Shown in pieces: positions 16,157 through 57,736 of a stretch of 64,000 nucleotides of DNA. How positions within the stretch are numbered: position 1 is the first letter of the stretch; each line of letters begins with the position of its first letter. Origin of the DNA: Ceraceosorus guamensis (Eukaryota > Basidiomycota > Exobasidiomycetes > Ceraceosorales > Ceraceosoraceae); contig NW_020290028.1 of assembly GCF_003144195.1 (NCBI RefSeq), positions 62,001 through 126,000 on the forward strand, given 5' to 3'. The notes beneath the pieces were generated by a model. It ran no database searches, was not told the origin of the DNA, and saw nothing but the letters and a program-made list of their open reading frames with translations. The position numbers and the translations under genes are program-made.

Positions 16157-16690
16157 GATGTGGGAGGAAGAGCGCGAGTGAAAGAGTGAGAGGGATGTTG
16201 ACTGCCTCTACCCCTTTGCGGCTCCGGTCTATCGTATCTCGTCGTGCTGTGCTGATGACAAAGTGGTGTGGCTAATCTGGCCTCACTGACGAGTCGTATC
16301 CGTGTCGTGAATGCCGAACTAGGCTTAGCTCAAGGGCCCAGACACGGTGAGGTAAAGAGAGAGGGAGGCGCTCTTCTGGTGACGAGTGCAAATCAACAAG
16401 GAGAGCACAAGTCCAAGGAAAGGCATAGAGTCAGCCAGCCGTCTTGACTTCCGAGTTGATGCTGCAAGACTGCTGCTTGTCTCGGTGGTGGTGGTGGTGT
16501 ATGCGTGCGTGCGTGTGTGTGTGTGTGTGTGCGCGTGCGTGCCTGCGTGCCTGCGTGCGTGCCTGCGTGTGTGTGGGTGTGAAAAGAGGGTCGCGCGCGC
16601 TCAGCTAGCCGAGCCCCCCATGCACCCATGCAGGCAGGCAGCAGTTGCATGATGAAATCGGGACCGCGGCGGGGACACGCACGCATCAAA
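16157..16690. promoter_or_regulatory. ARL1 upstream region up to the island boundary
   Basis: About 530 bases. It holds ARL1's promoter and an alternating purine-pyrimidine tract (16501-16580); nothing coding was recognised. Confidence 0.5.
16501..16580. repeat. Alternating purine-pyrimidine TGCG/TGTG/CCTGCG tract
   Basis: About 80 bases of TGCG, TG and TGCC units, an alternation that could adopt Z-DNA. It lies just outside the left inverted-repeat arm. Confidence 0.85.
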
Positions 16691-16805
16691 CAGCAGGCGT
16701 GTTGGAGCAAGTTTCACTGCAATGATGACTGGTGAGTGCATCCATGTCAAAGTATGAATGGACAATCTGCTTTAGTATATATCAACACTTCCATCCACGA
16801 GCAAA
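16691..16805. repeat. Left arm of 115-bp inverted repeat bounding the island
   Basis: Reverse complement of 27235-27349 with two mismatches in 115 bases. The arm ends four bases before the tRNA-Ala gene. Beyond it there is only weak further matching (a short GGGG). I see no clear target-site duplication outside the arms. Confidence 0.95.
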
Positions 16806-16809
16806 CAAT

Positions 16810-16897
16810 GGGGTTTTGGCCTAGTGGTATGGCGTCTCGTTTGCAATTTGCAACCGTTGAGTCGAGAAGATCGGGGGTTCGATCCCCCCAGACTCCA
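16810..16897 (+). tRNA. tRNA-Ala (anticodon UGC) with 16-nt intron
   Basis: The cloverleaf folds fully by eye. The acceptor stem GGGGTTT pairs with AGACTCC, with discriminator A and the G3-U70 pair that marks alanine tRNAs. The D arm is GCC/GGC. The anticodon stem TCTCG/CGAGA closes a 23-nt loop, i.e. a 7-nt loop plus a 16-nt intron (about 16846-16861) after the base 3' of the anticodon TGC (16842-16844). The T arm has GGGGG/CCCCC around TTCGATC, giving a perfect B box. A T run follows directly (16898-16902) and fits a Pol III terminator. A Cys(GCA) reading would break the anticodon stem, so Ala is preferred. Confidence 0.88.
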
Positions 16898-16902
16898 TTT
16901 TT
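16898..16902 (+). terminator. Pol III T-run terminator of tRNA-Ala
   Basis: Five consecutive T immediately after the discriminator base of the tRNA. Confidence 0.7.
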
Positions 16903-18447
16903 CGTGTCGAATTTTATTTCTGATCGATTTTGTGTTGCGTGCATGTCGGTGCTGCGCGTCGTGGAATTCTGTCATACGGCTTCAACACGTCTCTAGGGCA
17001 GTGTTTTGGACAAGTGTGGAGAGGTTCCAAGGGATCTGTAGACTCTCCTCTCTCTGCCTTTGCAGTTCATACAGGCATTGACCTCATCTCCCTCAGCCTA
17101 AAACATGCCCTGAATTGATACCAAGACATCTCAAGAAACATCAAGAGCTGCCCGCACAGGTCCTCACTGGACAACAAGCTCAAACTCTGCCCTTCTTCAG
17201 AACACATGGCTCTTTCATGCAGCAGTGCTCCTTATCTTGCCCAACTTATACAGAAGACCGCTAGGAAAAGAGTCTACACAGAGACAGCACTGTCAAAAAG
17301 AGAGGTTTCTTGGAGTCACATTGTGAGGCAGAGGTCAGTAACAAAGGCGCATGAGCCAGCTGAGCAAATGTTGTCAGTATGCTGCTGGGTCCAATATCAG
17401 CATTGGAGGCAGTAGGTCTGGCCCGATGCCTGCGCGTAGTCACGTTCTGGAACCTCAACAGTGCATGCTTTCATCTGTGAGGTCATGCTCTCCCTGCTCA
17501 CTCTGCACTCTCCTTCACCGCCCGCCCCTGGCTCCTGAATGTCATGAACGCGCGTAGCAAGAAGCACACGCTAGCGTCTCTTGCAATCTCTCAGGACAGT
17601 GCACAGCTTAATGTTGCATGCCTTCCAAGATAGCAAGCCAATCAGGAGCCAGCTCTGTGGTCGTGCACTGCAAAGGCTGCTAGGCAAGGTGCATCACACT
17701 GCATCAGCTCCAATGGACCGCTCAAGGGGTGACACAGTCCTTGGGGCGTCGTTATGATGACTGCTGCAAAACACTGACCCATTCACAATCCGTTCCTGAA
17801 CTCCTTCCAGCAGCTCTCGAAAGATCAGACAAGGGTCCACACACTCAGCAGGATGTGGTTGAAGCAGTATCCTAGATGGGCTGGCTGGGACGTTTAAGGT
17901 TACTTCTGAGCACTGCGTGTGAGTGGAAGGATCCAAGGATTCCACATGAGGCAAGAGCTGAATTGTCGTCTGATACCTTTTGAGGTCACGCTTTGCTCGC
18001 TGGCTGCAAAGGCTTTGGCTCTTTGTTGCCATCATTCAATGTGCACAACATGCTCTGGTCAATGTACTCTTGCCATCTGCTCTCTCTGTGCCAGTTTCCT
18101 TGTTGCTGCAAGCTCAACATGAGATCAGCTATCAAGACATTGGAAGTGAGCTCGTCACGAAGCGGAGATGCAAAGCCACACCTGAACAAGAGAGAGGTTG
18201 GTCATGAGAACAAAGCAGCGCTGGGAGAGATGTAGAAGGAGGAAACAAAGCTTGAGATGTACAAGGAACAACGCACAGAAGCGGGAGCTTTTCTTATTCG
18301 AAGAAGTGCAAAGATGAACGCTAAGGTTGCAAAGGCAAATACTTTGAAGTGAAGGCTTTGGTCACAGTAGGAGCGGCTTGGGGCCAATGCAATTCTGCAA
18401 TGAGTTGCTTGGGTATCTGCTTTGCCTGGCCACAGGAGGTTACCTGG

Positions 18448-18501
18448 GGCAAAGGGGGCAAAGGTGGCAAAGGTGGCAAAGGTGGCAAAGGTGGCAAAGG
18501 G
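18448..18501. repeat. 9-bp minisatellite, six units
   Basis: Six GGCAAAGGT-type units in tandem; the first and last end in GGG instead of GGT. Confidence 0.9.
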
Positions 18502-18877
18502 GAGAGACTACAGACCTACTTTTGGCGAACAACAAGTAGATTGTCTGCGTCTCTTCTCTGTCTGGTAAGCTGGAACTCAATGTCAGGATCGACACTGCAG
18601 AGTATATCTCACATCTGTTCCCAACAGGACGATTCTTTGCATGACTCTGTGATCACTCAAAGACACGTAGAGTCACTCATTTCGCTCTGAAGCATTGTCA
18701 TGTCAGACAGCCAGAGGTCACAAAGGGCGCATCTTCTGTGTGCACTAAAACCAATGTCTTTGAGCTCAAAAGGAACGCAAGCACCGAAAACGGAAGGATG
18801 CGTTGATGCGTAGTGTGCAAACGGAGCTTGTCGAGGATGACACTGGGGTGACCATATGAGGGGAAGGGGAAAAAAAA

Positions 18878-18894
18878 GGGGGGGGGGGGGGGGG
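18878..18894. repeat. Homopolymer of 17 G
   Basis: Uninterrupted G run following an A run, just downstream of the zinc-finger gene's 3' end. The length may be an assembly estimate. Confidence 0.85.
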
Positions 18895-19064
18895 AAATGA
18901 GGATGTGCGGAGGGAAAGGCAAGCCAGCGATGGTCCAGAGGCACGGAGGGAAAGAGAAGCCGGTAACTGCGATCATCGCAAGAAGCTGGCGACCGTCGAG
19001 GAAAGCGCTTTGGGGCCCTAGAAACATGAGGCTTCGAGGCGCCTCCGTGCAAGTAGATCGTCGC

Positions 19065-20120
19065 TCAGGATCCCGATGGGCCGCTCTGCTGCGTTGGCAC
19101 TTGATTTGCCGCAAGTTCCACCCTGCCGCCGAAGATTGGAAGCCTCCCAGGAGCAAGCTTGAGGGGCACTGCCTGCAAGGGTTGCTGCGGCAAGGGCGTT
19201 GCACTGCTTTGGCCCCAGAGGAGGAGATCAATGAGTGACCCTTGACCAGATCCTCGAGCCGCCACATGCTTATCATCCCGTGGTGACACTGCTGCCTTCA
19301 GGATGCGCCTCTGGAGCTCTGTGGGCAGCTCCAGGAAAGACATGCAGGGGTCCCCGCTGATGGCTTTGCGCCTGCCTTGGCGGCAATGCTCCACTCGATA
19401 GGTCGCATGCGAAGGGCAGTGCAAAAATCGTTTGGAGCATTTGGCGCAAGTGAACCAGCGCACGGTGCCCTCGTGGGGAAGCTGACCGGTGTTGGTTCGC
19501 ACGAAGCCGCTCCCTGTGAGCAGAGAGCAAAAGGGATGAGCTGATGTACCAGGCTTCTCACACGCACATCACTTACCGTTCTGGTCGACGTCTTGCCAAA
19601 TGGCTGAGACTATCTTGCCAAAATGCCGCTTGTGGTCAGTGTCGATCGACCATGGCAAACCGGTTGCTCGCGCCGTTCCCGTGGCCATGTGCAGGATGAC
19701 CAGATCGAGGGCTTGGGCGAGGGAGTACCCATTCTCAGCAACAAGGTCGGCTTCGTCCTTTGCCCAAACGCGGTCTTCTGGGGTCAGGCAGGCTGCAAGA
19801 CTGGGGGGCAGAAGCTGGCTTGCGGGGCAGCTGACAAGATCGCTCTGGACCGCTGCAGATATCTGGCCAGGGGCTGCCTCTGCTGCTACTTGGGCCTTCC
19901 AGTGGTCCACGTCTGAGGGCCAGAGGAGCTCGACAGTGTTGAGGTCCTTGTGCTTTTCGACCAGGGTGTAGGTCTGGCCGTTGGAGCACTTGTACCTGTG
20001 GCCCATGCGCACGAGTCCAGTCAGACCACAATGTCTGCAAGAGATGGCAAATACAGCCTCTGGCATTGAGATGGACCGAGCTGACGCAGTAAGCTCCTTT
20101 GCTGCAGCTGCAGACAGCAT
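19065..20120 (-). CDS. Unrecognised zinc-finger protein of the island
   Basis: Model: complement(join(19065..19513,19577..20120)), 330 aa with one 63-nt intron that has good GTAAGT/CACAG signals and keeps phase. Two Cys/His clusters are visible: CRHCG with a further Cys in YKCSNG (about 28-45), and FTCAKC followed by HCPSH and EHC (about 204-225). Together they suggest zinc-ribbon or classical-like metal binding. The middle contains a predicted helical region (PEDRVWAKDEADLVAENGYS). The C-terminus is Pro/Gln/Gly-rich with no obvious domain. No family recognised. It lies 285 bases downstream of, and in the same orientation as, the tandem unknown genes, so it may belong to the same element. The start could be further upstream. 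Confidence 0.55.
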
Positions 20121-20404: not shown

Positions 20405-23217
20405 TCACGCACCTTCCTTGACACCCATCAGCCATCCCCACCACGCATCATCGCCAGCAAGCATGAGTTTAGGGCAAGGGGCTGGCTTGAGGGCATTCTC
20501 CAGCTCTCCTCTCAGCAACGCCCAACCCTGCTCTCTTCTTGCTGCGACATCGACGGCCTTGACCTCAAGCTGGTAATCCCTCAGCTTGGTGAGGGTGATC
20601 ATTGCCGAGTTCCGGCAGGCAGCATCCCAGGCTTCCTCCGCGGTCTGCGTGGTCAGCTGATGGTGGTTCCTTTTCCAGTTGCGCAAGGTGATTGACCAGG
20701 CCCACGCCTCGAAATCAGCTTTGGCCTGGACAAGCTCCTCTTTGAAGGGCTTGAAGAGGAGCTCCATCCTCTCCTTGAGCTGGACGGCAGTGTCACAGGT
20801 TGGTGCAATGTGCACCATCAGATTTGCTTTGACAGCGACAAGGTAAGTGATGCGCTGAAGAGCACCTTGCCTGCTGGGCGATCCGTCGTACTTTTTGTAC
20901 CCAGGATGAGGAACCACAATTGCCACCGCGTGCAAGCCTGGCAAGACCGCCAGCCTACCAGCAGACGCCACGATGTTCGTCGTTTTGCGCAAGCCACGGT
21001 TAAGCAGAAGGGTAGATGCGACGTCATCGCCAAGGAGGACCATTGCTGCTGGATACATGATCTCTTTTGACACTTGTCGGTGTCTCATGATGAGCTTTAG
21101 CACCGCAACGAGACCAACATGGCATGGAAGGCTTCTTGCATGGACATCATCGACGAAGGCAACGAGATCAAGAAATGGTCCAAGATCAAGGCCAACTCTT
21201 TGAGCGTTTTCCAGATCTTCGGTCCACTCCCTGCCACCAATCCAAAGAAGCAAGTCTGGCCTGCAATGTTGCCGGCGGTGACGTCCTTGCCAATTGTGAT
21301 GACTGGCGCAGGCTTGTGCGGATGCAGCCCTTCCAAGCCTCGGCATGCATTTTCCACTGCGATGAGAGTGCGGAGAGAAGCGGCAAGCTTGCAAAGCGTC
21401 TTTGCCACCACTCTCTGGTGGTGAAGAAGCAAGCTGTGAGGAGCTCCTGGATGGTCATACCGTCGCCGTCATTGGGCGCTGGCAGCGCTGTGACCATCAG
21501 CGAGGCCTTCCTCCATCGACGACAGTTGATCGACGATTTCTTGGAGCCAGGGTTGACCTTCAGCGGCGCCAGACTGCAGAATGGAAGTCAGGCTGAGCGC
21601 TTCTATTTCTGCGTCGATGATGTACTGATCGGTGAGCAGGCCTCCGTAGCGTGCACTGTTGAAGGAGTGCAGGGGCGGACCAAGGTTGACCACAAAACGC
21701 TCGATTTCACCGATTGCAGGTGTTGTTTCAAAGACTGCATCGGCTCTCAGAGGCGCGACACCCAAGCGTCTTGGGCCCGAGACCGTACAACTGGATGCAG
21801 CAGGTGGGATTGTGATGGGTAGATTGATCACCTCATCAAGAAGGTCCCTCTCTTGGCTGATGCCGGTGGCCCTCTTTTGCGCAATCGAGCAGACTGAACA
21901 ACGCGCTGTCCCGTCTGAAATGGCATGTCGCAATGCTCGACAGCTGGGCAGTTGCAGGTGTATTGATCACGCTGCTCGCCGGTGTCGTTGGCACGCTCAT
22001 GGACAGCTCATATGAAATGAAGGCATCATGCTCAATGACTGACATGAAATTGAGCATTGCTGAAGTGGCAGAAGGACGCTCATCTTCTGCGGCTCGAGCG
22101 CGCACTGAGCGCGTTGCGAAGCCAAAGTAATTCTCTGTTGCTCCAACTCCCAGGCCATTGACATCTTCTTCCGCTATAAAGGCAGCAAGAATTGCCTGTG
22201 GAAACTGCTCCGCGAACCGCACACGAGTGGCAGCATCGACTGGGCGAGCACGCCAGTAGAACTTGTTGGTGGGTGGAGCGTCTCCTTCTAGAGCAGTCGG
22301 CTGGAGGCCGAGCTCCTCGGGATCCAGCGTACCACTGTCGATCTTCTTCAAAAGGGCCTAGCAAGGTCTGATGTACGTGTCAAACGTTGCTTGCGGAACA
22401 GGCTTGTAGCCTGTGATCAGAGAAGAAGTGAATTTAGCGGCGCAACGGGCGCATGTATGCGGTGTCTTGCATCAAGTCACCTTGTAGCGTAATTCTCTCG
22501 TTGACAGCATCGAACAGGTCAGTGGTCCCATCTTGTATGCCAGCCTGTTGTCCCTCCCACATCTTGTGCAGCTGCTGGTGCTGTACGTTGTCGGGATGCG
22601 ACAACTTGTTCACCTCGATGGTGACAAGCAGCATCTCCCTTGCTTGCTCTCTTTGATGCGCAAGCCACTGCGCCTTCTGCTCTGCCGTCAGCTCACGCTC
22701 AAAGTGAGGCTTGGTCCTCTTTCTCTTCGTAACGGGGGTCTTTCGCTGGGCCTCTGCAGTCTCAGCAATCTGCTGGACGTTGATCTCGATTATCAGGATG
22801 CGACAATTTGTTCACCTCGATGGTGACAAGCAGCATCTCCTCTGCTTGCTCTCTTTGATGCTGCAGCCATTGCTCCTTCTGCTCTGCCGTCAGCGCTCAC
22901 GCTCAACGTTAGGCTTGGTCCTCTTTCTCTTTGTCACAGGGGTCTTTTGCTGGGCCTTGGCAGTCTCAGCAATCTGCTGCGTGTTGATCTCGATTATCAG
23001 GATGCAACATCTTGTTTACCTTGATGGTGACAAGCAGCATCTCCTTTGCTTGCTCTCTTTGATGCTCAAGCCACTGCTCCTTCTGCTCTGCTCTCAGCTC
23101 ACACTCAAAGCAAGGCTTGGTTCTCTTCCTCTTTGTCACAGGGGGCTTTTGCTGGGCCTTGGCAGTCTCAGCAATCTGCTGGACGTTGATCTCACTCAGT
23201 CTGAGTGGACGGAGCAT
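20405..23217 (-). pseudogene. Unknown tandem gene family, copy A (degenerate)
   Basis: Homologous to copy B over most of its length but interrupted about two or more times, and its 5' part is expanded by a threefold 203-bp repeat. The N-terminus shares LRLSEINVQQIAETA and a basic KRKRTK stretch, NLS-like, followed by a charged Gln/Glu-rich helical region. The middle shares NKFYWRARP, PQAILAAFIAEED, NYFGFATRS and GPPLHSFNSARYGGLL. A C-terminal open stretch of about 300 codons (ENAQRVGLDLGPFLDLVAFV..., VVPHPGYKKYDG, LRDYQLEVKAVDVAARREQG) is present here and absent from copy B. I do not recognise the family; no polymerase or transposase signature is seen. Confidence 0.5.
22561..23169. repeat. 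Tandem repeat of about 203 bp, three units, inside copy A
   Basis: The block around CTCAGCAATCTGCTG recurs at about 22761, 22965 and 23167, with spacings of 204 and 202 bases. Each unit carries the KRKRTK-coding segment and the adjoining helical segment of the unknown gene. Copy B has a single unit. Confidence 0.85.
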
Positions 23218-23480
23218 CGTGGCGCGGCAAGTACGGTCACGCGAGGCGGCAAGCAAATTACAGACTGATCAGGGGGCGTGAGCTACGGTCAGCGCAGGGA
23301 TGGGTGGGGAGAGAGCTGGCAAAGGGGATGCTATGGGCCAAGACATTAGGATGCCGGAGATCACGACTCCCTTGAGGGATCCATTCTGGCACACGGTCGA
23401 TCACGACTAGCCGTGCGCCTGGAACCTCAGAGCGTCACGACTCACGCCAGCATCAGCTCCTGCGTGCTCGCCTTCAATTG
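23218..23480. promoter_or_regulatory. 5' flank of copy A, homologous to the 5' flank of copy B
   Basis: Shared landmarks with 25360-25570 in the same order: GAGCTACGGT, GCTGGC(A/G)AA, GGGGATGCT, TGCCGGAGATC, TTGAGGGATCC and ACTAGCCGTGC. The duplicated unit therefore includes presumed promoter DNA. Confidence 0.75.
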
Positions 23481-25359
23481 ATCTGCAATCTGAATTTGCA
23501 TGAAGGTGGTTGTGCTGCTTGCAATGGTCTGAAGGGCCGCACCTCCAGCAAGACATAGGCCATTTGCAACCATGATCTCATCTGCGCTGACCTCTCTTGC
23601 AAACAAGGCAGGTGGCTTGTGCTGCCAGCATCAACGATGGCCTGAATAGTGATTTCTGTGATGCTTGCAGGCAGTGTCCACTGGTCTAGGAGCAGACCAC
23701 CGTGGTTGTCAACAAATGCAACGAGATCAAGAAATGGTCCAAGATCAAGGCCAACTCTTTGAGCATTTTCTCTCCAGATCTTTGGTCCACTCCCTGCCAC
23801 CGGTCCAAAGAAGGAAGTCTGGCCAGCAATGTCCCTGGCGGTAATGTCTTTGCCAATGGTGAGGATTGGAGCAGAGCAATCTTCATCCAGAAGGTCAAGG
23901 CCTCAGCAGGCATATTGCGCTGCAACACGGACTCCATCCACGGACAGCAAAGACAGCTGGGGAAAATTGGCGCTCCACCAGTCTCGAAGGGTCATGAACC
24001 AGGCAAGCATCAGGTCATGGATGCTCGACGTCGGTTGATCTCCGATGGCAAGGGTTGTCGTGCTGCTTGTGGGAAGGACAGCAGCAAGATTGTCGACAGG
24101 CGTGACGGTGACCCCTTGCAGCCAAGGCAGGTTGTTTGTGCTGCCAGCATCGATGATGGCTTGAAGGGTGATGTCCGTGACGCTTGTAGGCAGCGTCCAT
24201 TGGTCTAGGAGCAGACCACCGTATCGTGCGCTGTTGAAAGAGCGCAGTGGAGGGCCCAGGTTGGCCAGAAGTCGCTCCACTTGTCCAAAGGCTGGCTGTA
24301 GCTCAAAGACCGAGTCAGCGCGCAAAGGGACGACACCAAGTCGCTGCTCGCTCGTGGTGAGTCGCTGCGTTGCTGGTCGGGGAAACGTCAGGTTGGTTGA
24401 GAGGGCCTCGTCAAGAATCTCCTGCTCCAGTTGCACCGTGGCTGCCGTTTTGGCTCGGTCCAGCAGCGACACGAGACCGTCATCTTGCTGATAGCGACAC
24501 GTGCTACTGTGCGAGGGCTGAACGTTACTGTTGGGCAAGGCATACGGCACCATGATCGGTAGCTCATATGCCTGGAACGGATTCGCCTCGATTGTCGACA
24601 TGTAGTTGAGCATCGCCGAGGTCCCAGGGCGATACTCATCCTCCTGAGCTCTGGCTTGCAATGAGCGCGTGGTGAAGCCGAAGTAGTTGTCTGTGACTCC
24701 AGCACACGGACCTTGCAGCTCCTCTTCCGCAATGAACGTTGCCAGGATCGCTTGGGGGAATCGCGTTGCGTATCGCGCTCGCGCACCGTCCCCTGCGGGA
24801 CGTGCACGCCAGTAGAACTTGTTGACCTGCTCGGTCTCCGTCTGCTCTGCGGCCGCAAGCCCAAGATCTTCCGGCGTGAACATGCCACTGTCCACCTGAC
24901 AGAGCATTTCCTCGACTGGCTCCAGGTAGGCTTCCCAAGTCTCGCGATCCACCGGCTTGTAACCTGCAGCAGCGAGAATGTGGTCAGTTGAATGCGCATA
25001 CATGCTACATTGATGGCAAGCTGCTCACCCTGCAGAGTAATCCTCGCATTCACAGCATCCAAAAGATCCATCTCGCCACCTTGCACCTTCTCCCACTGCC
25101 CTTCCCACATCTCGTGCAGCTTCTTTCGCTGCAGTATGTCGGGGTGCGACAACTTATTCACTTCGATGGTGACAAGCATCATCTCCTCTGCTCTTTCCCT
25201 CTGACATTGGAGCCACTGCGCCTTCTGCTCCGCCATCAGCTCACGCTCAAAGTGAGGCTTGGTCCTCTTTCTCTTCGTAATGGGGGTCTTTCGCTGGGCC
25301 TCGGCAGTCTCAGCAATCTGCTGGACGTTGATCTCACTCAGTCTGAGTGGGCGGTGCAT
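23474..25359 (-). pseudogene. Unknown tandem gene family, copy B (3' part rearranged)
   Basis: Start at 25359 (MHRPLRLSEINVQQIAETAE). A 65-nt intron at 24964-25028 joins the N-terminal basic/helical part to GYKPVDRETWEAYLEPVEE in phase, and a long open stretch of about 350 codons follows. Shared blocks with copy A: VNKFYWRARPAGD, PQAILATFIAEEE, DNYFGFTTRS, VERLLANLGPPLRSFNSA, GKDITARDIAGQTSFFGPVAGSGPKIW. After this last block the gene is broken and rearranged: a segment of about 100 bases from its own middle recurs at the 3' end, and the C-terminal region found in copy A is missing. The conserved splice and blocks argue that the family encodes a real protein. No known family recognised. Confidence 0.5.
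23604..23703. repeat. About 100-bp direct duplicate of 24122-24221 within copy B
   Basis: Same order of words as 24122-24221: TGCTGCCAGCATC, GATGGC(C/T)TGAA, TCTGTGATGCTTG / TCCGTGACGCTTG, and GGTCTAGGAGCAGACCACCG. Differences are scattered. Confidence 0.8.
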
Positions 25360-27234
25360 CGTGGCGCGGCGAGTAAGGGTGCGAAATACAGACGGGTAAA
25401 AGGACTTGAGCTACGGTTAGCGCAGAGGATGGGTTGGGACAGAGCTGGCGAAAGGGGATGCTGTGGTTCAAAAGATGGAGTTGCCGGAGATCGCTACACT
25501 CTTGAGGGATCCCTTCTGGTCTACGGTCCTGGTCACTACTAGCCGTGCCAGGTGCACGGCTCAGGCATCTGCCTGTAGCTGCCAAGTGGGTCGCTACGGT
25601 GCGCTGTCGCACACTTCACATAGACGAGCTGCATTGTAATAGCTTTTCCTTGCTACAGTCCCGCCACATGAGTCATTCTCTGCTACGGTCCCACGTCCGC
25701 CTACGAGAGGGAGCTCAGCGATCGTTGCACTCGCACTGCTGTAAAAATAGGCATGCAGTGCGTGTCGTCAATCGCACAGGCTCGGCATGCAGGCAAGGAG
25801 TTGCGGACGACATAGCAAGTCTGGAAACCACTCGAAATATGATTGGTTCGACTGCAGCGTCCGAATGCTGGCGGACTGGCCGGAGTGCCGGATAGTGGTC
25901 CGTCAGGCTTGATCCGACTCTTTCATGGTTTGGGCCATCGTATAGCTGGGCGTGGTGCCGCGTTGGGCTTGATCTAAGTCTTTCATGGTTTGGGCCATCG
26001 TATATAGCTGGGCGTGGTACCGGGGCTGTGCGTTTCGATCGACGAGCATCACGCCCCCCGTCTTCGACTTGAGATTCGTCTTCAAGTGAATGTGTCATCT
26101 GGATCAGATTCACAGTTTGCCCGGCCAAACGCAGGTCGCGTGTATACACTCGGGAAGTCTGCGCTCAAGTACATGTAGCACTCAACCTTGCTTGCGATCG
26201 GACGCGGACAGAGATTCCAGAAAGTGCACCGCAGTGCCCTTCTGACGCTCGCTCGCATGTGCGATTCGCAATCTCAGTTAGTCGTTCCTGATTTCTTGAT
26301 TCGCAGTCGTGAGTGTCCAACAGTTATTGTGGCCGGCCACGCATGCGTGCCATGCACGAGCACATGCATATGTCCGATTCAGCCCAATCGTGAATCCTCC
26401 GTGCTTCTTGATCAGAATTTGCTATAGTCGTGAGTATAGCGCATGCGTACATGCAGCATCACCACGCGCATTCGCTGCTGTGCGTCCCTGCAACCGATGC
26501 GCAGGAAAAGGCGCGTGAGTGCGCGGATCGAAGTCAAAAGTATCGTGTCTGCATGTGAGCACAGCAGCAAGCCCCGAATGACTCACCATTCCTGAAGCGT
26601 CATCCACGTTGTGTTTCGTCATTCATCTTTGTGGCTTGCACCTCTGCGCTGTTCATGACGGCACGAGCTCTCTATATATAGCTCATGCTCGACACGCCCT
26701 TCACCGCACAAGCTCTTATGTCTTGCTCGACACACGCGGATGAGATCATGTTACGATCGAGGGAGCGTGTGTATCTCAGATACCGGCACATGGATGCGCT
26801 ATATATGTATAAACTGCTGACGATGCGCATCACGTGTACGCGTCGCACGCTTACTTTGCGTGCACGCATCAGTTGCGCATAAGGTATACCATATACACAC
26901 GCATTTATCTAAGATTATTGCAACTCCCTTCGCAACCCCATAATTGAGCACTTGAAGGAAGTGAATATATTTACTGAAGCTAGCTGCCCATCCCGCCCTC
27001 ATCTGTCTGTTGTGGTGTGAGATTCGAAGATTACCACTGACCGACCCTTTGCTTCAACTTGCAGCCTTGGAGCTGCTCATGCATGTGCAGGGATCTTGAC
27101 TCGCGTGATTCAAGATTGTCGCTTGCGTCGCGACGCGCGGAGCTCGTACCGTTTCTCAAAAACGTACCCTGATCAAGTCACGCGTGCGCAAGGTGCGTAC
27201 GGCTCGTTGCGCGCGCGACACACAGAGACCCCTT
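25360..27234. other. Right part of the island, no gene assigned
   Basis: The first about 210 bases match the copy A 5' flank. The rest holds a 60-bp direct repeat and many TCACGA/TCGTGA motifs (for example near 26305, 26390, 26428). AT-rich patches with TATATA occur at about 26673-26680 and 26800-26808. No open frame with a recognisable product. Confidence 0.45.
25906..26022. repeat. 60-bp direct tandem repeat, two units
   Basis: TTTCATGGTTTGGGCCATCG starts at 25921 and again at 25981, each followed by TAT(AT)AGCTGGGCGTGGT and preceded by GCTTGATC. Confidence 0.9.
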
Positions 27235-27349
27235 TTTGCTTGTGGATGGAAGTGTTGATATATACTGAAGCAGATTGTCCATTCATACTTTGACATGGAT
27301 GCACTCACCAGTCATCATTGCAGTGAAACTTGCTCCAACACGCCTGCTG
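27235..27349. repeat. Right arm of 115-bp inverted repeat bounding the island
   Basis: Reverse complement of 16691-16805 with two mismatches. No tRNA lies on its inner side, unlike the left arm. It ends about 420 bases before the RDH54 start codon, so it sits in or next to that promoter. Confidence 0.95.
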
Positions 27350-27770
27350 TGCAGGCTCCTCTTGGATTGTTGTGGTGCAAAATCCAAGGAATACTTCGAG
27401 CAACAGTCTTTTTGTTTGGACTCGCAGCCGTGAAGCCGAGAGGCATGATCACTCACGCTTATGAGCAGGCTCGATGGTACACCTGCAGGTGTGTAGAGGG
27501 GTATCTTGCCCCCCCGCTTGTGCCGCGTCGCGCGAATTCCAGCTACGCGAGGTGATGCGTGCTGTTCTTTACGCGCGCGACGCCACAGCTCCGTCTCCAG
27601 ACGGAAGGCGCGTCGCGAAGACGCGCGCGCAGCTGCTCGAGACGAAGAATGCGCTGTTGGTGATCTTGATTCGCCTCATCCTCTGCCCCTCCACCACGCT
27701 TAAACCCGCGTTTCCTTTTCTACCTTGCCGGCCCTGTTCCCTCCCCCAACGGAGCGCCGCAACCCCGATC
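27350..27770 (+). promoter_or_regulatory. RDH54 upstream region
   Basis: About 420 bases between the right repeat arm and the ATG, GC-rich near the gene. No specific element identified. Confidence 0.5.
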
Positions 27771-30700
27771 ATGGAATCAACCTCTCGACTGCACTCCAAG
27801 TTCAAGCCGCCAGCTTTCATACGTCGGCCAGAATCCGCGCGCGCGCCACCAGCCAAGCGTCCCAGGACCGCCTCGCCAGATCCCAATGAAGACGTCGAGA
27901 CGGAAGCTTTTGCGCAATCGCACGGGTCAAGAGTCATTCGCAAGGGAACGGCTACTCCAGAAAAGGGGCGAGGCGATGGTGGTGCGACTCTGAGCAGTGG
28001 CACCAAAGCTCCGCGCGTGCGTCCCAATGGCACCCCGCAACCTGCTTCGCGCTTTGCAGCTCAGCGTTACTACCTATGTACTTGGCGAAAGCCACAAGCT
28101 CGGAAACACAAGACGTGGGATGGAGACGCGGTGCTCATTCTGCGTTCAGAAACTGGCACCTGTACTTTGCGTTGTGCCGAAAGCTTCAAGGAGTGAGTTC
28201 TGCCCGCCGAATGATCTCATCGCCTGCCTCTCTTATCCACAGCGCACCTTTCGCAGCCTCGCTACCAATGTTCGCTTCACAGGAGGAGAGCTCAGCTCCG
28301 GTGATGAGCTGATGGTGGGGGGCCGAGAGGTGAGCAATGAAGGCCAGCGAGGGAATAGAAAGACCGCGCGCTGACGATTGCAGCGTCTCCTCTCTTCGAG
28401 TAGATAGAAGTGAGCCGTCTCGTCTTGCGGTGCGCTGTCCCAACTTTGCTCATGATCGCTGCCACGCCGCCGCCGCCTCAGATTGACCGGCAAATCAGTC
28501 ACATCGAGTACTGCAATGGGGAGAATGGCGGAGCCTTCTCGGGAGGCGCAGCAACTCACCCCACCCCTCGAACGCCAGCCGCGCCAGTGCAAAGCTTCTA
28601 TGGTGAGCTTTGACGTCTCAAAGACCCGAGGCATGGCACTCATCCTTCACCTCCACACACCAGCGAAACCTCCCACAAAGCCTTTCAAGAAGCTCAACGT
28701 AGGCATCAGCGCTACTTCTGCGGCCAAGACGGCCACCCCCATCAAGGTCGAAAAAGATGCGACCGCCAGCTCTAGTCGAAGCCCAAGCCCCACCAAAACC
28801 GGTAGCCGCCCCTCGGGCTTACAAGATCCCGGACTTGGCAAAGAAGCCAGGCCGAGGTGAGCAGCTAGAGTGCCAACGAGGTTGCTATGAAACAGCATCT
28901 GGGACCTCTTACGTTACTAGCTCATACTCACACCCAAAGACGCCTGCAGATACGACCCTGCGGCCGAAGGAGCCATCATCATGAAACGGCCCGACGAGGC
29001 TCACGCCAAGCGGTACAACAGGCAGTGGGTGCTATTGCGACTCTCCCCCGGCTCTTGTGAGCGCACGGCTCACGCGTCTCCCTCACCCGCATGCAGCAAC
29101 TATCCCATCGTCGACGTCGTCGTTGATCCGATTTTAGGCCGCGCTCTCCGTCCTCACCAGGTCGAAGGAGTCAGATGGCTTTACGAGCGCGTCATGGGAA
29201 TGAATGACGAAAAGTCAGATCAGTACGGGCAGGGCGCGATCCTGGCAGACGAGATGGGCTTGGGAAAGACTGTGCAGACCATCGCCCTCGTGCACACGCT
29301 CCTCAAACAGTCGTGCTACTACACTTCATCGCCCAGCACCGTTCAGCGCGTGCTCATCGTCTGCCCTCTGTCCCTCGTCAAGAATTGGAAGCGAGAGTTT
29401 CGAAAATGGCTTGGCGGCAACTCTCTCAACATCCTCTGCGTGGATGGTAGCGAGCAGACCAAACCGGAACGCTTCCTCATGTCGAGGACATTTCAAGTGC
29501 TGATCATCGGCTACGAAAAGCTACGCACGTGCGTCGACATGCTAGCGTCTGCCCAGCCGCCCATCGGCCTGATCGTCTGCGATGAGGGTCACCGACTCAA
29601 ATCAAAGGATGCCAAGACGACGAAAATGTTCGAGGCGCTCTCGACGCCGCGGCGCATCATACTCTCGGGAACGCCAGTTCAAAATGATCTCTCCGAATTT
29701 CACGCCATGGTAGACTTTGTCAATCCGGGTCTGCTTGGCGACTACAACGTCTTCAAAAAGGTGTTTGAAGAGCCCATCGTGAAGAGCCGCATGCAACATG
29801 CCAACAAGCAAGTACGAGAGACGGGCAAGTTGCGCAACGAGGATCTCAAAAAGGTGACGGCAGTAATTATTCTTCGCCGCACCGCAGAGCTCTTGACTCA
29901 ATTCCTGCCACCAAAGTGCGAGCAGGTGCTCTTTTGTAGTCCGACGCAAAATCAGCTCGACACCTATCGCCACGTGTTGGGGTCCACACAGGTACGAGAT
30001 GTGCTGGACAGCGGCAAGACCAGTGGCGGCGGAGGGAGCAGCGCCTTGACTTTGATTGGCGTCCTCAGAAAGCTTTGCAATTCTCCAGAGCTACTGCTCA
30101 AGGATCTAGAGACTTCCAAACGCGATGGAGAAGCGTCGTTGACGGCAGCGATTCTAGAAGGTGCAATGTCGCAATCTGCATCGAAGCGCTTGTCCGGCAA
30201 TGCCAATCTCAGCGGCAAACTGCTCTTGCTCAGCAGCATGCTCCAAAGCATCCGTAAAGAGACCGACGACAAAGTCGTCTTGGTATCCAATTTCACCGCA
30301 ACATTAGACATCATAGAAATCATGTGCAAGCGCAGCGGTTACAGCTTTGTTCGACTAGATGGCAAGACGAAGCAAGAAGATCGAATGGACCTGGTCTCGG
30401 CTTTCAATCGAGGCACGCAGTCGAACAACTTCATCTTTCTTCTCAGCGCCAAAACGGGTGGTGTGGGTCTGAATCTCACTGGCGCCAATCGTCTGATCCT
30501 CTTCGACAGCGATTGGAATCCGTCGGTGGACAGGCAAGCCATGGCGCGCATCCATCGCGATGGCCAAAAGAAGCCTTGCTTCATCTATCGGTTGTTGCTA
30601 GCAGGAACGATGGATGAAAAGATTTATCAACGACAAATTTCCAAAATCGGCCTCAGCGACTCGCTCATCGAGGACAGCACCGCGTCTGGCCAATCATCTG

Positions 30701-31614
30701 ACACTTTCTCCGTAGAGGACTTGCGCGACATTTTCACCCTCCATCGAGACACGCCGTGCCTTTCGCACGACAATCTTTCGTGCTCTTGCAATGGCAACGG
30801 TATAGCAAAATCTGGCATCGACCACACGCAAGCGAACGTCGAGAGCGATGACGAAGATGTCCCAGTCTTGGCTGGCTTCGTGCCTGCCTCGCAGCACGCC
30901 CGTAGCCCGAAAGCGCAGGTGAGTTGTGAGCCGGACGGCATGCACTCTGGTGGAAGCTCATCGCTCGTGTCATTTCCCCAGCTGCCCAGCAAGCGCGCAA
31001 AACTAGCTGCTTTGCATCAATGGGGCCATTTCGATCTTCACAAGGCCGATACAGGGTGTCTTGCGCTCGTCGAGGACGACCTTGTACGTCGCATTGTAGA
31101 GAAGCAGACCCATTCACAAGGCGTGGTCGCGCATGGAGCGTGCAAGTCACCTGCTATTTCACCTCGATCTGGCCTCGGCGACGTGACCAATGGCAGCAAT
31201 CCCAGCTCGCCAAGCAAGAGCACCCTGCTGGGAAAGACGGATGTAACCACCCTCGAGAACGATGCTCTCGCGAGAAGATGCGCAGAGGAGCGCAAGGCTG
31301 CTTTGGCGAATGCCGTCGTTTGCGAGCCCATTTCGCGGCGAAAGCTTCGCGATGCTCGAGGCGGACGACCGCCAGCTCCACCCGTCCGCTCACCTGAGCT
31401 TCAAAGACAAGTACTCGCAGCTCCTCCAGAGCTGTTGAGTCAAACAGAAGAGGGCGTCGAGAGCGAGGCGCCAAAGGGCAGTCCATCTTGGAGCGACTTT
31501 GAAGGTGGCGATCTCGGCCGTCCAACTTTCGACATTACTCTGTGCAAGCCCGGTTCGCTTTTGTACGCATTCATCAAGTCTTCAAAGGCGCGCAGCTCAA
31601 ATGAAGAAGAATGA
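27771..31614 (+). CDS. RDH54: RAD54B/RDH54 SNF2-family recombination translocase
   Basis: ATP-driven dsDNA translocase acting with Rad51/Dmc1 in homologous recombination. Model: join(27771..28192,28257..28329,28404..28409,28482..28602,28664..28856,28950..29024,29097..30918,30982..31614), 1114 aa. The N-terminus has STSRLHSKFKPPAFIRRPE and YYLCTWRK with KHKTWDGD, typical of RAD54B. The SNF2 core follows: GAILADEMGLGKT (about 343-355), CDEGHRLKS (DEGH box), SGTPVQND, DSDWNPSVDRQ and RIHRDGQ. The 6-nt exon (encoding IE) is supported by flanking TAG/GTGAGC signals and by the family's GGKEIE motif, but skipping it would also keep frame. The introns at 29025-29096 and 30919-30981 are multiples of three without stops. 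C-terminal about 200 residues are poorly conserved. Confidence 0.92.
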
Positions 31615-32917: not shown

Positions 32918-35900
32918 TCAATCGCCCTGACCGCTCGAGTCGCTCTGCGCTTCGTCACTGCTCTCTTCGTTAGCAACTTGTTCTGGGCTCGTCGCTCGCA
33001 GTGCTTGCACTTTGCGCTCAGTCTCCTCGCTCTGTAGAGCACCTTCGCTCTTTCGAGTCACGCGCCCAGACCGACGAGGCTGAATTGTAATGACTGGATG
33101 CGACTTCTCGTTGCGTCGACGAGACCTAACAGCAGTCGAGGCTTGTTCTGTAGACGCTGCGTTTTCATCAACACGATCGTCGGCGGGCGGATGACTGCTT
33201 GCACGAGCATCATTGGCCTCGTTATCTCCAGCCCGCGCTCGTAGATGTGCAGGGGGTCGAATCCGAATGCGAGGTTTTGACGAGGGTGCTTCTGCACTTT
33301 CGGGTCGCTTCGCCTTTGGGGGCGAAGGTTGAAATCCATTGACGAGATCGTTTGACCTTTTGGCACCCTTGGCGCTCTTGACGCTTCGTGGCTGACCTCG
33401 AGAAGCAGAAGACTTTGCAGCTCCCCTTCCCCTCGGCTTCTTGCTGTGCCCATTCGAATGCTCTGATGCAGACTCTGCTTCCGAGAGCGGGGAGTCAGCT
33501 TGGCGGCTCCGTCTGCGATGATTGGGCGCGGACGAGGCCAAGGATGCCAGGCTGATAATTTTCCGAGGTGCGCTAGGCGGAGAACTCTCCTCCGCCTGAT
33601 CTCCAGCTTCGGAGGACGATTGATCGTGAATGACATCTTCGGCCATCTCCGTGTCCTCGCCTGCCTCTGGCTCTTCCTCAATAAAGTCGCTCTCTTGACT
33701 TGCCTCTGCGTGGACGCGGTGACTGCTGCCGCCAGATCTCGCACCGTAGCGAGCGATGCGAGCAGCAAAGTCTCGATTCGCAGCGCTCAGCTGCTCGCCG
33801 TTTTCTCCAGCCTTGCCATTGGTTGGTGGGCGGCCCTCCACGTCGACAAGAAAACCGCCCTGCTCAAGTGCCCCGTCATCTGCTTCGAGGGCATGCAATT
33901 TGCTATTCTCGCTTGCATGGGCATCTCTAGACTCTGTCGCGCTCGAGGCTTCTTTGCGAAGGTCTGCTTCATCATGAGAGGCTCCGTTTCCGTACTGCTG
34001 CTGGACGCGCTGGGCGATGCGCACAGCATTGACCACCTTCTTCCAATTCTTGAGCGCCCTCTCTTGCCGCTTGGTGAATTCTTTCTGGGCCGCAGCGTGC
34101 TCCGACTCCCAGTATGCCTGAGATGCAAGAACAGATGGTCAACACGAGTTCCGAGACGACGCGGCTGGGCTCGCTCGCTCACCTCCGTGACCAGGTCTTC
34201 ATTCTCCTCTGCAACGACGATACCGGTGAGTTTGGGCATGCTGCGGAATTTCCTAAACTCGAACCCAGTCTGAAGCCGAAAAGCGTCATGGTCAGTCGAA
34301 CCCCACAACATCATATCCTCACACGACACTCACGATAGCCTCGGCGTAGCTGACACCAAGCTTCTTGGCTACCTTGCCAGCACCGTTATAGGGGATGTGC
34401 ACGCCGCCAGGCGGCAACATGCTTGGCACAAAGAGGTCGATGTTCCCGAATGCATTCTTCGGCACCTCGCCGTTGGTTACTTGCGGAGCAGTGTAAAGTT
34501 GTGTCTGAAAAGGCGCGTACAGACCCTCCTGCGGCGCCTCCCCTCCATCTGCTTTCGCAGCTTCCTCGGCACGCTTGTTCGCGAGAGTGTACCCACGACT
34601 CTTGACCCATTTCAATGGCTCCTCGCCATCCTTGACGACTTTACCCTCGTTGTACCACTGTCGAGCGCTTCGACAGGTGACGACGTTTCCTCGCGGGTAC
34701 ACCTTGATGCCTTGAAACGTGCCAATCTGTCGAAGAGGGTGAATAACTTCGTCTCGAAGAAGGTGCTTCTCGATTGCGTACACTGGATGTCCTTTGAAGC
34801 CTCCGACGCTAGATGGCATGGGCTCTTTGCCTGCAGCATCTTCCAGCTCCAAATCCTCTGCGGCATCTCTGTCGAGCTTTTGAGGTCGATGCAATGCGCG
34901 CACCACACTTTCCCACCATCCTTCTAGACTGCCTTTTGGAGCAGGCGGCCGCATGCGATTGACGCGCGAGTGCAGAGTCTTGGTGTATCTCGCAGTGACG
35001 TCCCTCGCAAAGCCATCCTCTTCGAATGCGACCACGTAGACGAGCTTGTTACGCCTATCGCTTGGAGGTGGCTCCATGTGCCGGTTGGGACCGACTTCGA
35101 CTTTCGCACGGATCGGATCGATCGTCATCCATTTCTGCCACGGTTTCGAAAACACTTCGACCCACATGGTAGGTGCAGCTTCGAGGTCCACAAACTCCAT
35201 GTCAGACAAGTCCTCAGCAGCCAGCTCCGTAGCTTTCGCTTGTTTGGGCCTCGATTTGCGCAAATTCGGCGTATAAGGAACGTCTTTGAGCGGTCGTGGG
35301 GGTGAAGGTGGCGCTTTTGCATCCTTTTTGGCTCTTTTCTTTGCGCTCCCCTTGCCATTCGTCGTGCTCGCGGCCGACTCTTCAACCCCGGTTGCCTCGG
35401 CCTTGCTGCCGCGTTTGCGCTTTGCAGGCGAATTGGTCGTCGAAGCACCAGACTCACTCGCGGCAGCGCGAGCGCTTCTCTTGCCTCTGTTGGCTCGTGT
35501 GCCTCGCGCGGCTTGACTGGGCGAGTCAGCATCGCTCAATGCGGAGCTCGAGTGGGAGTCACCTCGCTTCCGAGTCTTTCGGGCGCTCCCTTTCGGCTTG
35601 GAGGAGCTTGCCTGTGCTGGACTGAATTCTTCTGACCCACTCTGCCACTCCTCATCCTCGCTCGTCAACTCGTCATCCGGCTTTCGCTTCTTCCTTGCCT
35701 TGTCGACGAGTCCCTTTCCCTTTCCTTTGGTAGCCTTTTCTCGCGTCCCCTGAGTTGTGGCCACCTTTGCGGCTCCAGCGCTCCATGGCGCGACTTGAAG
35801 AGATATGACTAGCCGGGCCGGAATGCCCAAGGCTCGACAAAGGCAGCAGAACATTTGCGCAGAAGTCTCCCGCGAGCCTTGCCGCAGCTCTGCACGATGC

Positions 35901-37360
35901 TGAAGATCTGCAGGGCATGAGATGGCCTCGACAGGTGGGGCGAGCCGAAGGTAGGTGGGCGTGACAGCAGCCATTCCCGACCCTTGGCCGAAGAGCGTGA
36001 TGTCTGTCGCAGGCTCGACCTTGGCTCGTTTCATTGATCGGCCGGAACGCGCATGAGGGTGTTGCTCATTCGTAGCTTTGCCCTTGCCTTTACGGTCCAT
36101 CTTGGGCGAGCTCTTTAGCTGAGCGTCATCGATGGACTGTTGACTCTTCGCCGCTCTCTCCGCCTTCCACCTCTCCTCCCTCTCCAAAGCTGACTCGACG
36201 ATCCATCCATCCACCCGAATGCCTGGTAGCGGAAAATTGCCGACGAGAACATCGGCATTGGGCTGCTTGATAGCAGCGGTCGTCGCGGCTCTTGATTCGA
36301 TGCGGAAGCGACGATATGCCCACCAGCAGACCAGGTCGAGCATGAAGATCTCAAAGAGCCTTACTCGTTCGCGCTGATTTGCAACTCGCTTTGGATGAAT
36401 CTGCTTCAGCTTGTTGCGAAGCTCTGCAGGCACGACTTCGAATAGAGCATCCTATCGTAGCAGCGAAGAGTAAGCAGGCGTTCCCGGGATTCGCCGCAGG
36501 CTCGCACCACTCACTCTAAGCTCGGCGTCATTGAGCCAAGCATTCCTGATGCGGGCATGAGCGAGCAGCGCCAGAGCACCCAGCTTGTGGACAGCCATGC
36601 GCGTCTGACGATCCCTCGGCGTGACGCGATTCTCGTTGGCCCTTTGCTTCGCTTTGCGTTTCTGCTCCTCTTCCTTGGCCGCTTGCCCGCCTAGACTCAA
36701 CGAGATTACGCCAGGCGGCTGTCCTTTGCCGTCTTTGAAGACGGGCTGGTTCGAAGTGGAAGGGCCTCCTCCACCCGCCCCTTGACCTTCTCTGCTACTG
36801 TTCTCGTCTTCGTTTCCGGCTTCCGATACTGCTGCAGCGTACAGAGCGGCGTACCCTGCAGTGTCCTCTTGGCCACCAACATCGACATCCTCCATCTCGA
36901 GGTCCTCCTCCTCCTCCTCCTCCTCCTCCTCCTGCTCGCCAACCTCTTTTGCACTACCACCGGTGACATCAACCTCCTCCATCTCAAAATCTTCCCCTTC
37001 CGGCTGAGACGCCTTCGTGGACCCTCGCCGCCTCGGAGCGGGTGTCCGACCATTTGTGTCGTGACTGTTGGAAGGCATCGACGTGGACGCCTCCGCATCC
37101 GAGTCTGATATGGTGACGACTTCAGACTTCCTTTTTTCACCCGCACCTCTCCCAGCAGGCTGAGATGCTCTCACGGACGATCGACGGACGACGTCCGACT
37201 TTTGAGGTTCGTCAGACGAGATCTCGTGCAGAGAGAGGATCTCGTCCGGCGTGGGTGGAGTGGGGTATCGCCGAGATCGACCTCTAACTCGACCTTGACC
37301 TCTCTCGCTGGCCCCTCCTCCGCGTTGACTGTTGGCGGCAGATCGGCGAGGAGGTGCCAT
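32918..37360 (-). CDS. RAD4: RAD4/XPC DNA damage recognition protein
   Basis: Initiates global nucleotide excision repair by binding distorted DNA with Rad23. Model: complement(join(32918..34117,34183..34269,34334..36451,36515..37360)), 1416 aa, much longer than yeast Rad4 (754 aa). Residues 1-280 are disordered, with a Glu run encoded by a GAG microsatellite. The transglutaminase-like domain is split by a long low-complexity insert: MFCCLCRALGIPARLVISLQ (about 480) and TMWVEVFSKPWQKWMTIDP (about 711). The beta-hairpin domains follow: BHD1 (HLLRDEVIHPLRQIG, about 850), BHD2 (FQTQLYTAPQ ... GNIDLFVPSMLPPGGVHI, about 930-965) and BHD3 (AEAITGFEFRKF ... GIVVAEENE). The C-terminal 400 residues are Ser/Ala/Glu-rich. 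Downstream of COG7 on the same strand. Confidence 0.95.
36904..36935. repeat. Trinucleotide CTC/GAG repeat in RAD4
   Basis: About ten CTC triplets on the plus strand encode the poly-Glu run of RAD4. Confidence 0.9.
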
Positions 37361-57322: not shown

Positions 57323-57736
57323 TTGATGGCACCTAGCCGCGAGCACAACTGCACTCCAAAGCGCTCCTGTCTTCGCGCCGATGATGTTTGCCGAGGCGAG
57401 CACCACTGACAACGCTGTATCAATATCATCTCTTCATTTCACCAACGTGATTTCATGAACATAAGAAAAGAAAAGACGATGGTGGACCTTACAGGGCGAT
57501 CGAGGTGCGCGGGACTCGTGTGCGCTCTACTAGGAAGATCGCAAGACTAGTGGGAGCACGTAGAAGGCTGTTTGTACCGTCGATCATCCATCGTCTTCCG
57601 GCTTTGGTCGCTTTCGTCCACCTGACGAGCGACTGCGGCAAATGCGGAGAGAACACGCTCTGTGGTATTGAGCTGCGCGCGCTTCAGAAGAGCGCGCGAC
57701 GCTGCTTGAGCTAAAGATGGGTTCAAGTGAAAGCTG
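57323..57736. other. Convergent intergenic region
   Basis: About 410 bases between ceramide glucosyltransferase and the secreted-protein gene; no feature seen. Confidence 0.5.

What the first reader, a model, noticed from the sequence alone, without database searches (positions are those of the whole stretch)
20405..25359. Undescribed tandem gene family, possibly one module with the downstream zinc-finger gene
Two head-to-tail copies on the minus strand share many protein blocks (SEINVQQIAETA, KRKRTK, NKFYWRARP, PQAIL, NYFGF, FNSARYGGLL) and even their 5' flanks. I recognise no known domain. Copy B has a clean in-phase intron, so the ancestor was a real spliced gene. Both copies look degenerate. 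The zinc-finger gene (19065-20120) follows in the same orientation. This could be the cargo or machinery of an unclassified basidiomycete element.
Basis: partly seen in the sequence, partly recalled or inferred. Interest (0 to 1): 0.75.

Follow-up and report, generated by a model that had tools for sequence, protein, structure and literature searches.

The report
Decayed fungal gene pair, unknown family
A fungal chromosome carries two old, damaged copies of a protein gene that matches no family searched and may contain a DNA-repair-like domain, inside a 10.7-kb stretch with mirror-image ends that could be a dead mobile element or a small inversion.

Summary
Two head-to-tail relatives lie on the minus strand. 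Copy A (25359-23903) is an open spliced frame of 463 codons ending at a TGA; 66 more homologous codons follow, then rearranged sequence. Copy B (23217-20405) is broken by a 204-bp tandem triplication, a stop and four frame changes. Both share one phase-1 intron. A-B divergence shows past purifying selection (dN/dS about 0.23 in exon 1; synonymous sites near saturation in most of exon 2): old paralogues. The downstream 330-aa cysteine-rich gene is intact.

No Pfam or NCBIfam model passed its cut-off, and the bacterial, viral and phage searches gave no relative. By eye, then by targeted profile comparison, the C-terminal region resembles the uracil-DNA glycosylase fold: it beat 49 of 49 control pieces in one test. 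Pfam and HMMER do not confirm it and no independent model was usable, so it is a moderate lead.

116-bp inverted repeats (98%) bracket the stretch; the left arm abuts a tRNA gene. No target-site duplication or known transposase was found, so mobility is not established; an inversion scar fits as well. Neither the host genome nor a fungal collection was available.

The parts
25029..25359 (-). Copy A exon 1 (basic N-terminus; ATG at 25359)
   Evidence: open frame; codon score 0.189 bits/codon, highest of six frames; intron boundaries
24964..25028 (-). Copy A intron, 65 nt, phase 1
   Evidence: GTGAGC...CTGCAG; splicing keeps the frame
23903..24963 (-). Copy A exon 2 up to a TGA that is premature compared with B
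   Evidence: 463 codons open after splicing; codon score 0.151, highest of six frames; 45% and 52% aa identity to B over two stretches
23705..23902 (-). Copy A tail past the TGA, still homologous to B; holds the stretch read as UDG-like motif A
   Evidence: 66% aa identity to B over 44 codons; profile registers, scores not significant; a reverse frame scores slightly higher by codon usage
23596..23703 (-). Misplaced 108-bp piece, 86% identical to 24115-24222: trace of recombination with another copy
23218..23416 (-). 5' flank of copy B, homologous to that of copy A (25360-25548)
   Evidence: 25139-25548 vs 22997-23416, 78.5%
22481..23217 (-). Copy B exon-1 region; its 204-bp tandem array (22594-23193) breaks the frame
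22411..22480 (-). Copy B intron, 70 nt, same place and phase as in A
21169..22410 (-). Copy B exon-2 region, broken by a TAG stop and by frame changes
   Evidence: homology to A runs through 22408-21875, 21876-21514, 21455-21393 and 21339-21169, and the open C-terminal stretch starts at 21211: the frame changes four times
20405..21211 (-). Copy B C-terminal open stretch (268 codons); its first ~125 residues resemble the later half of the uracil-DNA glycosylase fold
   Evidence: hhalign score 26.1 vs maximum 21.6 of 49 control pieces; query H102-P103 on invariant columns of alignment A2
19065..20120 (-). Intact two-exon gene, 330 aa, with CxxC pairs (by eye) and a 63-nt phase-1 intron
   Evidence: no Pfam family at E <= 10
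16690..16805 (+). Left arm of the 116-bp inverted repeat
   Evidence: 98% complementary to 27235-27350
27235..27350 (-). Right arm of the 116-bp inverted repeat
16810..16897 (+). tRNA gene with intron, 4 bp inside the left arm; read by eye as tRNA-Ala(UGC)
   Evidence: Rfam RF00005, 55.2 bits; ARAGORN with bacterial settings found none

Best explanation
This is a decayed cluster of an old, multi-copy fungal protein family that was once under purifying selection. The intact ancestor was probably a protein of about 770 residues (inferred from pieces of the two copies) with a basic N-terminal region, a middle region of unknown fold, and a C-terminal region built like a uracil-DNA glycosylase (UDG) alpha/beta domain. 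If the UDG reading is right, the intact relatives bind DNA, flip a base out and either excise it or only bind it. In this locus B is dead and A is cut short, and both have been scrambled by unequal recombination between paralogues. Shown: homology, shared intron position, past selection, decay, recombination traces. Inferred: the UDG-like fold and any action on bases. Unknown: whether the 10.7-kb stretch moved as a unit.
For: Homology, shared intron and decay. Past selection: exon 1 dN 0.146, dS 0.624; second part of exon 2 dN 0.51, dS 1.8; first part dN about 0.4 with dS not computable (saturated); tail dN 0.25, dS 0.46. Frames fit host codon usage. UDG-like region: hhalign of 20408-21211 against a family-4 UDG profile gave 22.0 with 11 sequences (200 shuffles: max 21.9) and 26.1, E 0.0027 for this one comparison, with 91 sequences (60 shuffles: max 20.9). 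Against the same profile 49 control protein pieces (many overlapping) gave mean 13.4 and max 21.6, and E. coli Mug, a true superfamily member, 35.9; on the reversed profile the piece fell to 14.1. The register puts the strand with LGxxA and the HP motif in order; MAFFT puts both on their UDG counterparts under 3 of 3 settings, two of which gave the same alignment. The A tail's best local alignments, none significant, fall on the motif-A part of the profile (34-52 on 58-76; 34-53 on 58-77; 8-17 on 36-45).
Against: No Pfam match for the C-terminal piece or the A tail even at E <= 10. hmmsearch E is 0.79 (first of 787 ORFs) with one profile and 1.1 (third) with the broader one. The broader profile gave 23.1, not above the best of 300 shuffles, 23.3. 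No signal against a 6-sequence UNG profile (13.3) or single-sequence Mug (17.2; shuffles max 20.3). The A tail and the homologous B tail score no better than shuffles, and the B tail's best local alignments to the family-4 profiles fall elsewhere (34-40 on 42-48; 23-33 on 35-45). GKDITA lacks the usual proline. Single-sequence AlphaFold gave pLDDT 41 and helices only. The UDG idea came from reading the sequence, so the test was chosen after the fact.
Confidence: 0.45

Rival explanations
1. The 10.7-kb stretch is a dead DNA transposon of an undescribed kind: the 116-bp inverted repeats are its ends, and the gene family and zinc-finger gene are its cargo or machinery.
For: Long, 98% identical inverted ends with no third copy in the window bracket the orphan genes; related copies next to an intact gene in one orientation; the left arm ends 4 bp from a tRNA gene, and DNA transposons that target multicopy small RNA genes are known (Dada, PMC3706591, listing and start of abstract seen).
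Against: No target-site duplication of 5 bp or more at the outer ends within shifts of 8 bp, save one shared 5-mer (GCAGG) that lies inside the left arm and needs unequal shifts. No transposase or recombinase model matched in Pfam. The tRNA gene lies inside the arms. The arms differ at 2 of 116 sites while the genes inside are far more diverged and decayed. Copy number could not be examined.
Confidence: 0.2
2. The inverted repeats are the scar of an inversion made by staggered breaks (or a fold-back duplication of the tRNA gene's 5' flank), and the genes are ordinary host paralogues decaying in place.
For: No target-site duplication; no third copy of the arm in the window; a gapped alignment carries the right arm's homology five bases into the start of the tRNA (GGGGT), as expected of a copied tRNA flank, though five bases may be chance. 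The staggered-break mechanism is recalled; papers on such inversions were seen only as search listings and starts of abstracts.
Against: Such a scar does not explain why the segment holds precisely an orphan multi-copy family. The inversion cannot be polarised without a related genome.
Confidence: 0.35
3. The UDG likeness is chance, and the C-terminal region is an unrelated fold in a wholly uncharacterised fungal family.
For: Library searches without a match above cut-off; HMMER E 0.79-1.1; one of three family-4-based profiles failed to beat the best shuffle; the motif-A stretch never scored above shuffles.
Against: Score above 49 of 49 control pieces, in a sensible register over 59 columns; HP and LG motifs align to their counterparts under 3 of 3 MAFFT settings.
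Confidence: 0.45

Closest known systems
Uracil-DNA glycosylase superfamily, family 4 (TM0511/1l9g, T. thermophilus 1ui0)
   Same: Order and spacing of a motif-A-like stretch (IGKD...SFFG), a strand, an LGxxA stretch and an HP motif; weak profile similarity
   Different: 17-25% identity to the 29 members put into alignment A2; no Cys of the query stands opposite C89 and C105 of TM0511 in the alignments; GKDITA instead of GEGPG; large extra N- and C-terminal regions
Mug/TDG (UDG family 2)
   Same: Same superfamily fold proposed; TDG acts in animals and fungi on oxidised or deaminated 5-methylcytosine (PMC8307549, passages found by term)
   Different: No direct similarity of the query to E. coli Mug (17.2, within shuffles)
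DNA transposons with TET/JBP cargo in fungi, KDZ among them (PMC12730594; start of abstract, one passage)
   Same: Fungal DNA transposons that encode a DNA-base-modifying enzyme
   Different: No Pfam transposase model matched here (that Pfam holds KDZ, Plavaka and CxC models is recalled); the term search of that paper found 0 'UDG' and 1 'glycosylase', in a discussion of TDG
Dada DNA transposons (PMC3706591; listing and start of abstract only)
   Same: DNA transposons that target multicopy small RNA genes
   Different: Here the tRNA gene is whole, no target-site duplication was found and no transposase was recognised

Membership tests
UDG superfamily | Profile match above curated threshold (PF03167) | tested here: not met
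   no Pfam match at E <= 10 for the C-terminal piece and the A tail
UDG superfamily | Motif A after strand 1 (GQDPY / GEGPG / GINPG) | tested here: inconclusive
   PILTIGKDITARD / PVITIGKDVTAGN in A and B; A tail in the right register, B tail not, neither significant; no proline
UDG superfamily | HP(S) motif after the last strand | tested here: met
   VVPHPGY; query H102-P103 on invariant columns of 30 aligned sequences; read first by eye, so post hoc
UDG superfamily | Fold | tested here: inconclusive
   single-sequence model pLDDT 41; model made with 29 UDG sequences in the alignment pLDDT 65.5, best PDB matches UDGs at E 0.01, which is circular
UDG family 4 | Four Fe-S cysteines | tested here: not met
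   no Cys opposite C89 and C105 of TM0511 in the printed alignments; the other two (C18, C21) lie outside the piece; that these four bind the cluster is recalled
TIR DNA transposon | Terminal inverted repeats | tested here: met
   116 bp, 98%
TIR DNA transposon | Target-site duplication | tested here: not met
   none of 5-8 bp at the arm ends
TIR DNA transposon | Transposase | tested here: not met
   no Pfam transposase among the 10 pieces or the 4 proteins
TIR DNA transposon | Several copies in the genome | not testable with these tools
   no host genome held

The most novel reading that the evidence does not exclude
A new kind of basidiomycete mobile element with 116-bp inverted ends beside a tRNA gene, whose machinery or cargo is a large protein with a uracil-DNA-glycosylase-like domain plus a cysteine-rich partner protein, and no recognisable transposase.
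Probability: 0.1. Interest if true: 0.8.

Novelty: new variant of a known kind. Interest (0 to 1): 0.42.

Why it matters
If intact relatives exist with a UDG-like domain, fungi have a multi-copy DNA-glycosylase-like family that the Pfam copy searched does not detect, possibly tied to mobile DNA. That would parallel the TET/JBP enzymes carried by fungal transposons and bear on how elements face host DNA modification. If not, this is a decayed orphan gene cluster with an inversion scar.

Tried and rejected
Known families by sequence: Pfam (10 pieces: 9 of 10 without a match, one below cut-off at E 0.31; 3 entries covering 2 distinct pieces at E <= 10: none; 4 more proteins: none), NCBIfam (8 pieces: 2 matches, E 0.005 and 0.087, far below cut-off in bits), PHROGs (8 pieces: 4 unknown-function matches at E 0.07-0.45), PDB by sequence (3 pieces: only E >= 0.3). 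Relatives: the C-terminal piece in viral contigs (none), bacterial and archaeal genomes (104 pattern matches, no relative) and phages (none); exon 2 of A in viral contigs (6 pattern matches, no relative). start from short peptide patterns and find close relatives only. Exon 1 and the zinc-finger gene were not searched there.

UDG family 1 (6 sequences) and Mug (1 sequence): no signal from the C-terminal piece. The B tail aligned over 52 columns to UNG positions 49-102, which span its GQDPY, but with a score (12.4) like shuffles (mean 11.8). Subterminal repeated motifs as transposase sites: in 25360-27234 no 6-, 7- or 8-mer exceeded the best shuffles (8 vs 10, 4 vs 6, 3 vs 5); in 16900-19060 the excess comes mainly from a poly-C tract and a 9-bp tandem repeat. 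Literature: seven searches, of which 20 of 60, 15 of 476, 12 of 15, 11 of 11, 10 of 12, 8 of 36 and 8 of 97 papers were listed; no title or start of abstract listed there described this family. Only open-licence papers are held, so this is no proof of absence in print.
Full report
What is there. On the minus strand, two related genes stand head to tail, then an intact third gene. Copy A starts at an ATG at 25359, has a 65-nt phase-1 intron (25028-24964) and stays open for 463 codons to a TGA at 23903. The 66-codon stretch after the TGA still resembles copy B. The sequence then jumps to a 108-bp piece (23596-23703) that is 86% identical to a stretch inside A itself (24115-24222), which suggests recombination with another copy. 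Copy B starts at 23217. Its 5' flank matches that of A (25139-25548 vs 22997-23416, 78.5%). Its exon-1 region carries a 204-bp tandem array of three copies, it has a 70-nt intron at the same place and phase, and it is then broken by a TAG stop and by four frame changes. Its last 268 codons (21211-20405) are open.

Was it a real gene? Yes. In eight of nine pieces the called frame has the highest host-codon score of six frames; in the short A tail a reverse frame is slightly higher. Comparing A with B gives dN 0.146 and dS 0.624 in exon 1, dN 0.51 and dS 1.8 in the second part of exon 2, dN about 0.4 with dS not computable (saturated) in the first part, and dN 0.25 and dS 0.46 in the 44-codon tail. 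Outside the tail, such low dN relative to dS means both lineages were selected as proteins for a long time after they parted, so they are old paralogues and not a recent tandem duplication. The uneven similarity (exon 1 and the tail are closer than the middle) fits gene conversion or recombination, as do the extra partial copies.

What family? None that the libraries know: Pfam and NCBIfam gave nothing above a cut-off and PHROGs nothing better than E 0.07. Searches of bacterial, viral and phage collections with the C-terminal piece, and of viral contigs with exon 2 of A, gave no relative. Reading the sequence, I noticed that the C-terminal part has the order of elements of a uracil-DNA glycosylase: PILTIGKDITARDIAGQTSFFG in the A tail, AAMVLLGDDVA and VAIVVPHPGYKKYD in the B C-terminal piece.

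I tested this with profiles built from family-4 UDG sequences. With 91 sequences the B piece scored 26.1 against 60 shuffles with a maximum of 20.9. Against the same profile 49 unrelated protein pieces (many overlapping) reached at most 21.6, the true member E. coli Mug scored 35.9 and family-1 UNG only 13.2; against the reversed profile the B piece gave 14.1. An 11-sequence profile gave 22.0 vs a maximum of 21.9 in 200 shuffles. A broader one of 124 sequences gave 23.1 vs a maximum of 23.3 in 300 shuffles, a miss. HMMER put the piece first of 787 window ORFs with one profile and third with the other, at E 0.79 and 1.1. A motif pattern written after seeing the sequence hit 2 of 787 ORFs, the piece and one other, against 0.085 per shuffled set. 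MAFFT put the LG and HP motifs on their counterparts under 3 of 3 settings.

The motif-A side is weaker. The A tail alone never scored above shuffles, although its best local alignments lie on the motif-A part of the profile. The homologous B tail aligned elsewhere on the family-4 profiles.

A single-sequence AlphaFold model was useless (pLDDT 41). A model built with 29 UDG sequences in the alignment reached pLDDT 65.5 (block means 72-81 over residues 51-100), and its best PDB matches are family-4 UDGs at E 0.01, none at E <= 0.001; that is circular. I give the UDG-like reading about even odds. Membership in family 4 proper is not supported: no cysteine stands at the two Fe-S positions that the piece covers.

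The bracket. The same stretch is enclosed by a 116-bp inverted repeat, 98% identical, at 16690-16805 and 27235-27350, with no third copy in the window. The left arm ends 4 bp before a tRNA gene (16810-16897; Rfam 55.2 bits), which I read by eye as tRNA-Ala(UGC) from the G3:U70 pair and the loop. I looked for a target-site duplication of 5-8 bp and found none at the ends. The right arm's homology may continue for five bases into the tRNA start, which may be chance. Two readings remain: element ends without a visible duplication, or an inverted copy of the tRNA flank left by an inversion or fold-back event. The second needs fewer assumptions. The first would explain why the enclosed genes are orphans.

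The neighbour. The gene at 20120-19065 is intact: 330 codons with a 63-nt phase-1 intron, CxxC pairs by eye and no Pfam family even at E <= 10. Its second exon has a weak codon score (0.018). Only adjacency and orientation link it to the family.

Limits. The host genome is not held, no fungal collection could be searched, and the species is not known.

Noticed in passing
16810-16897 +: tRNA gene with an intron, missed by ARAGORN under bacterial settings but found by Rfam; read by eye as tRNA-Ala(UGC).
   Followed up: yes
25906-26022: 1.9 copies of a 60-bp tandem repeat upstream of copy A, overlapping a 63-aa open frame with a high codon score (0.279) and no Pfam match.
   Followed up: partly
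18448-18500: 9-bp tandem repeat (GGCAAAGGT, 5.9 copies) downstream of the zinc-finger gene; a poly-C tract (minus strand) lies nearby at about 18880.
   Followed up: no
28981-31614 + and 34319-36433 -: Two host genes of DNA-repair type to the right of the right arm: a SNF2-type helicase (Rad54-like by reading) and a Rad4/XPC homologue.
   Followed up: no
57727-58894: Two long overlapping open frames on opposite strands (57727-58479 + and 57737-58894 -), rich in Arg, Asp, His and Glu.
   Followed up: no
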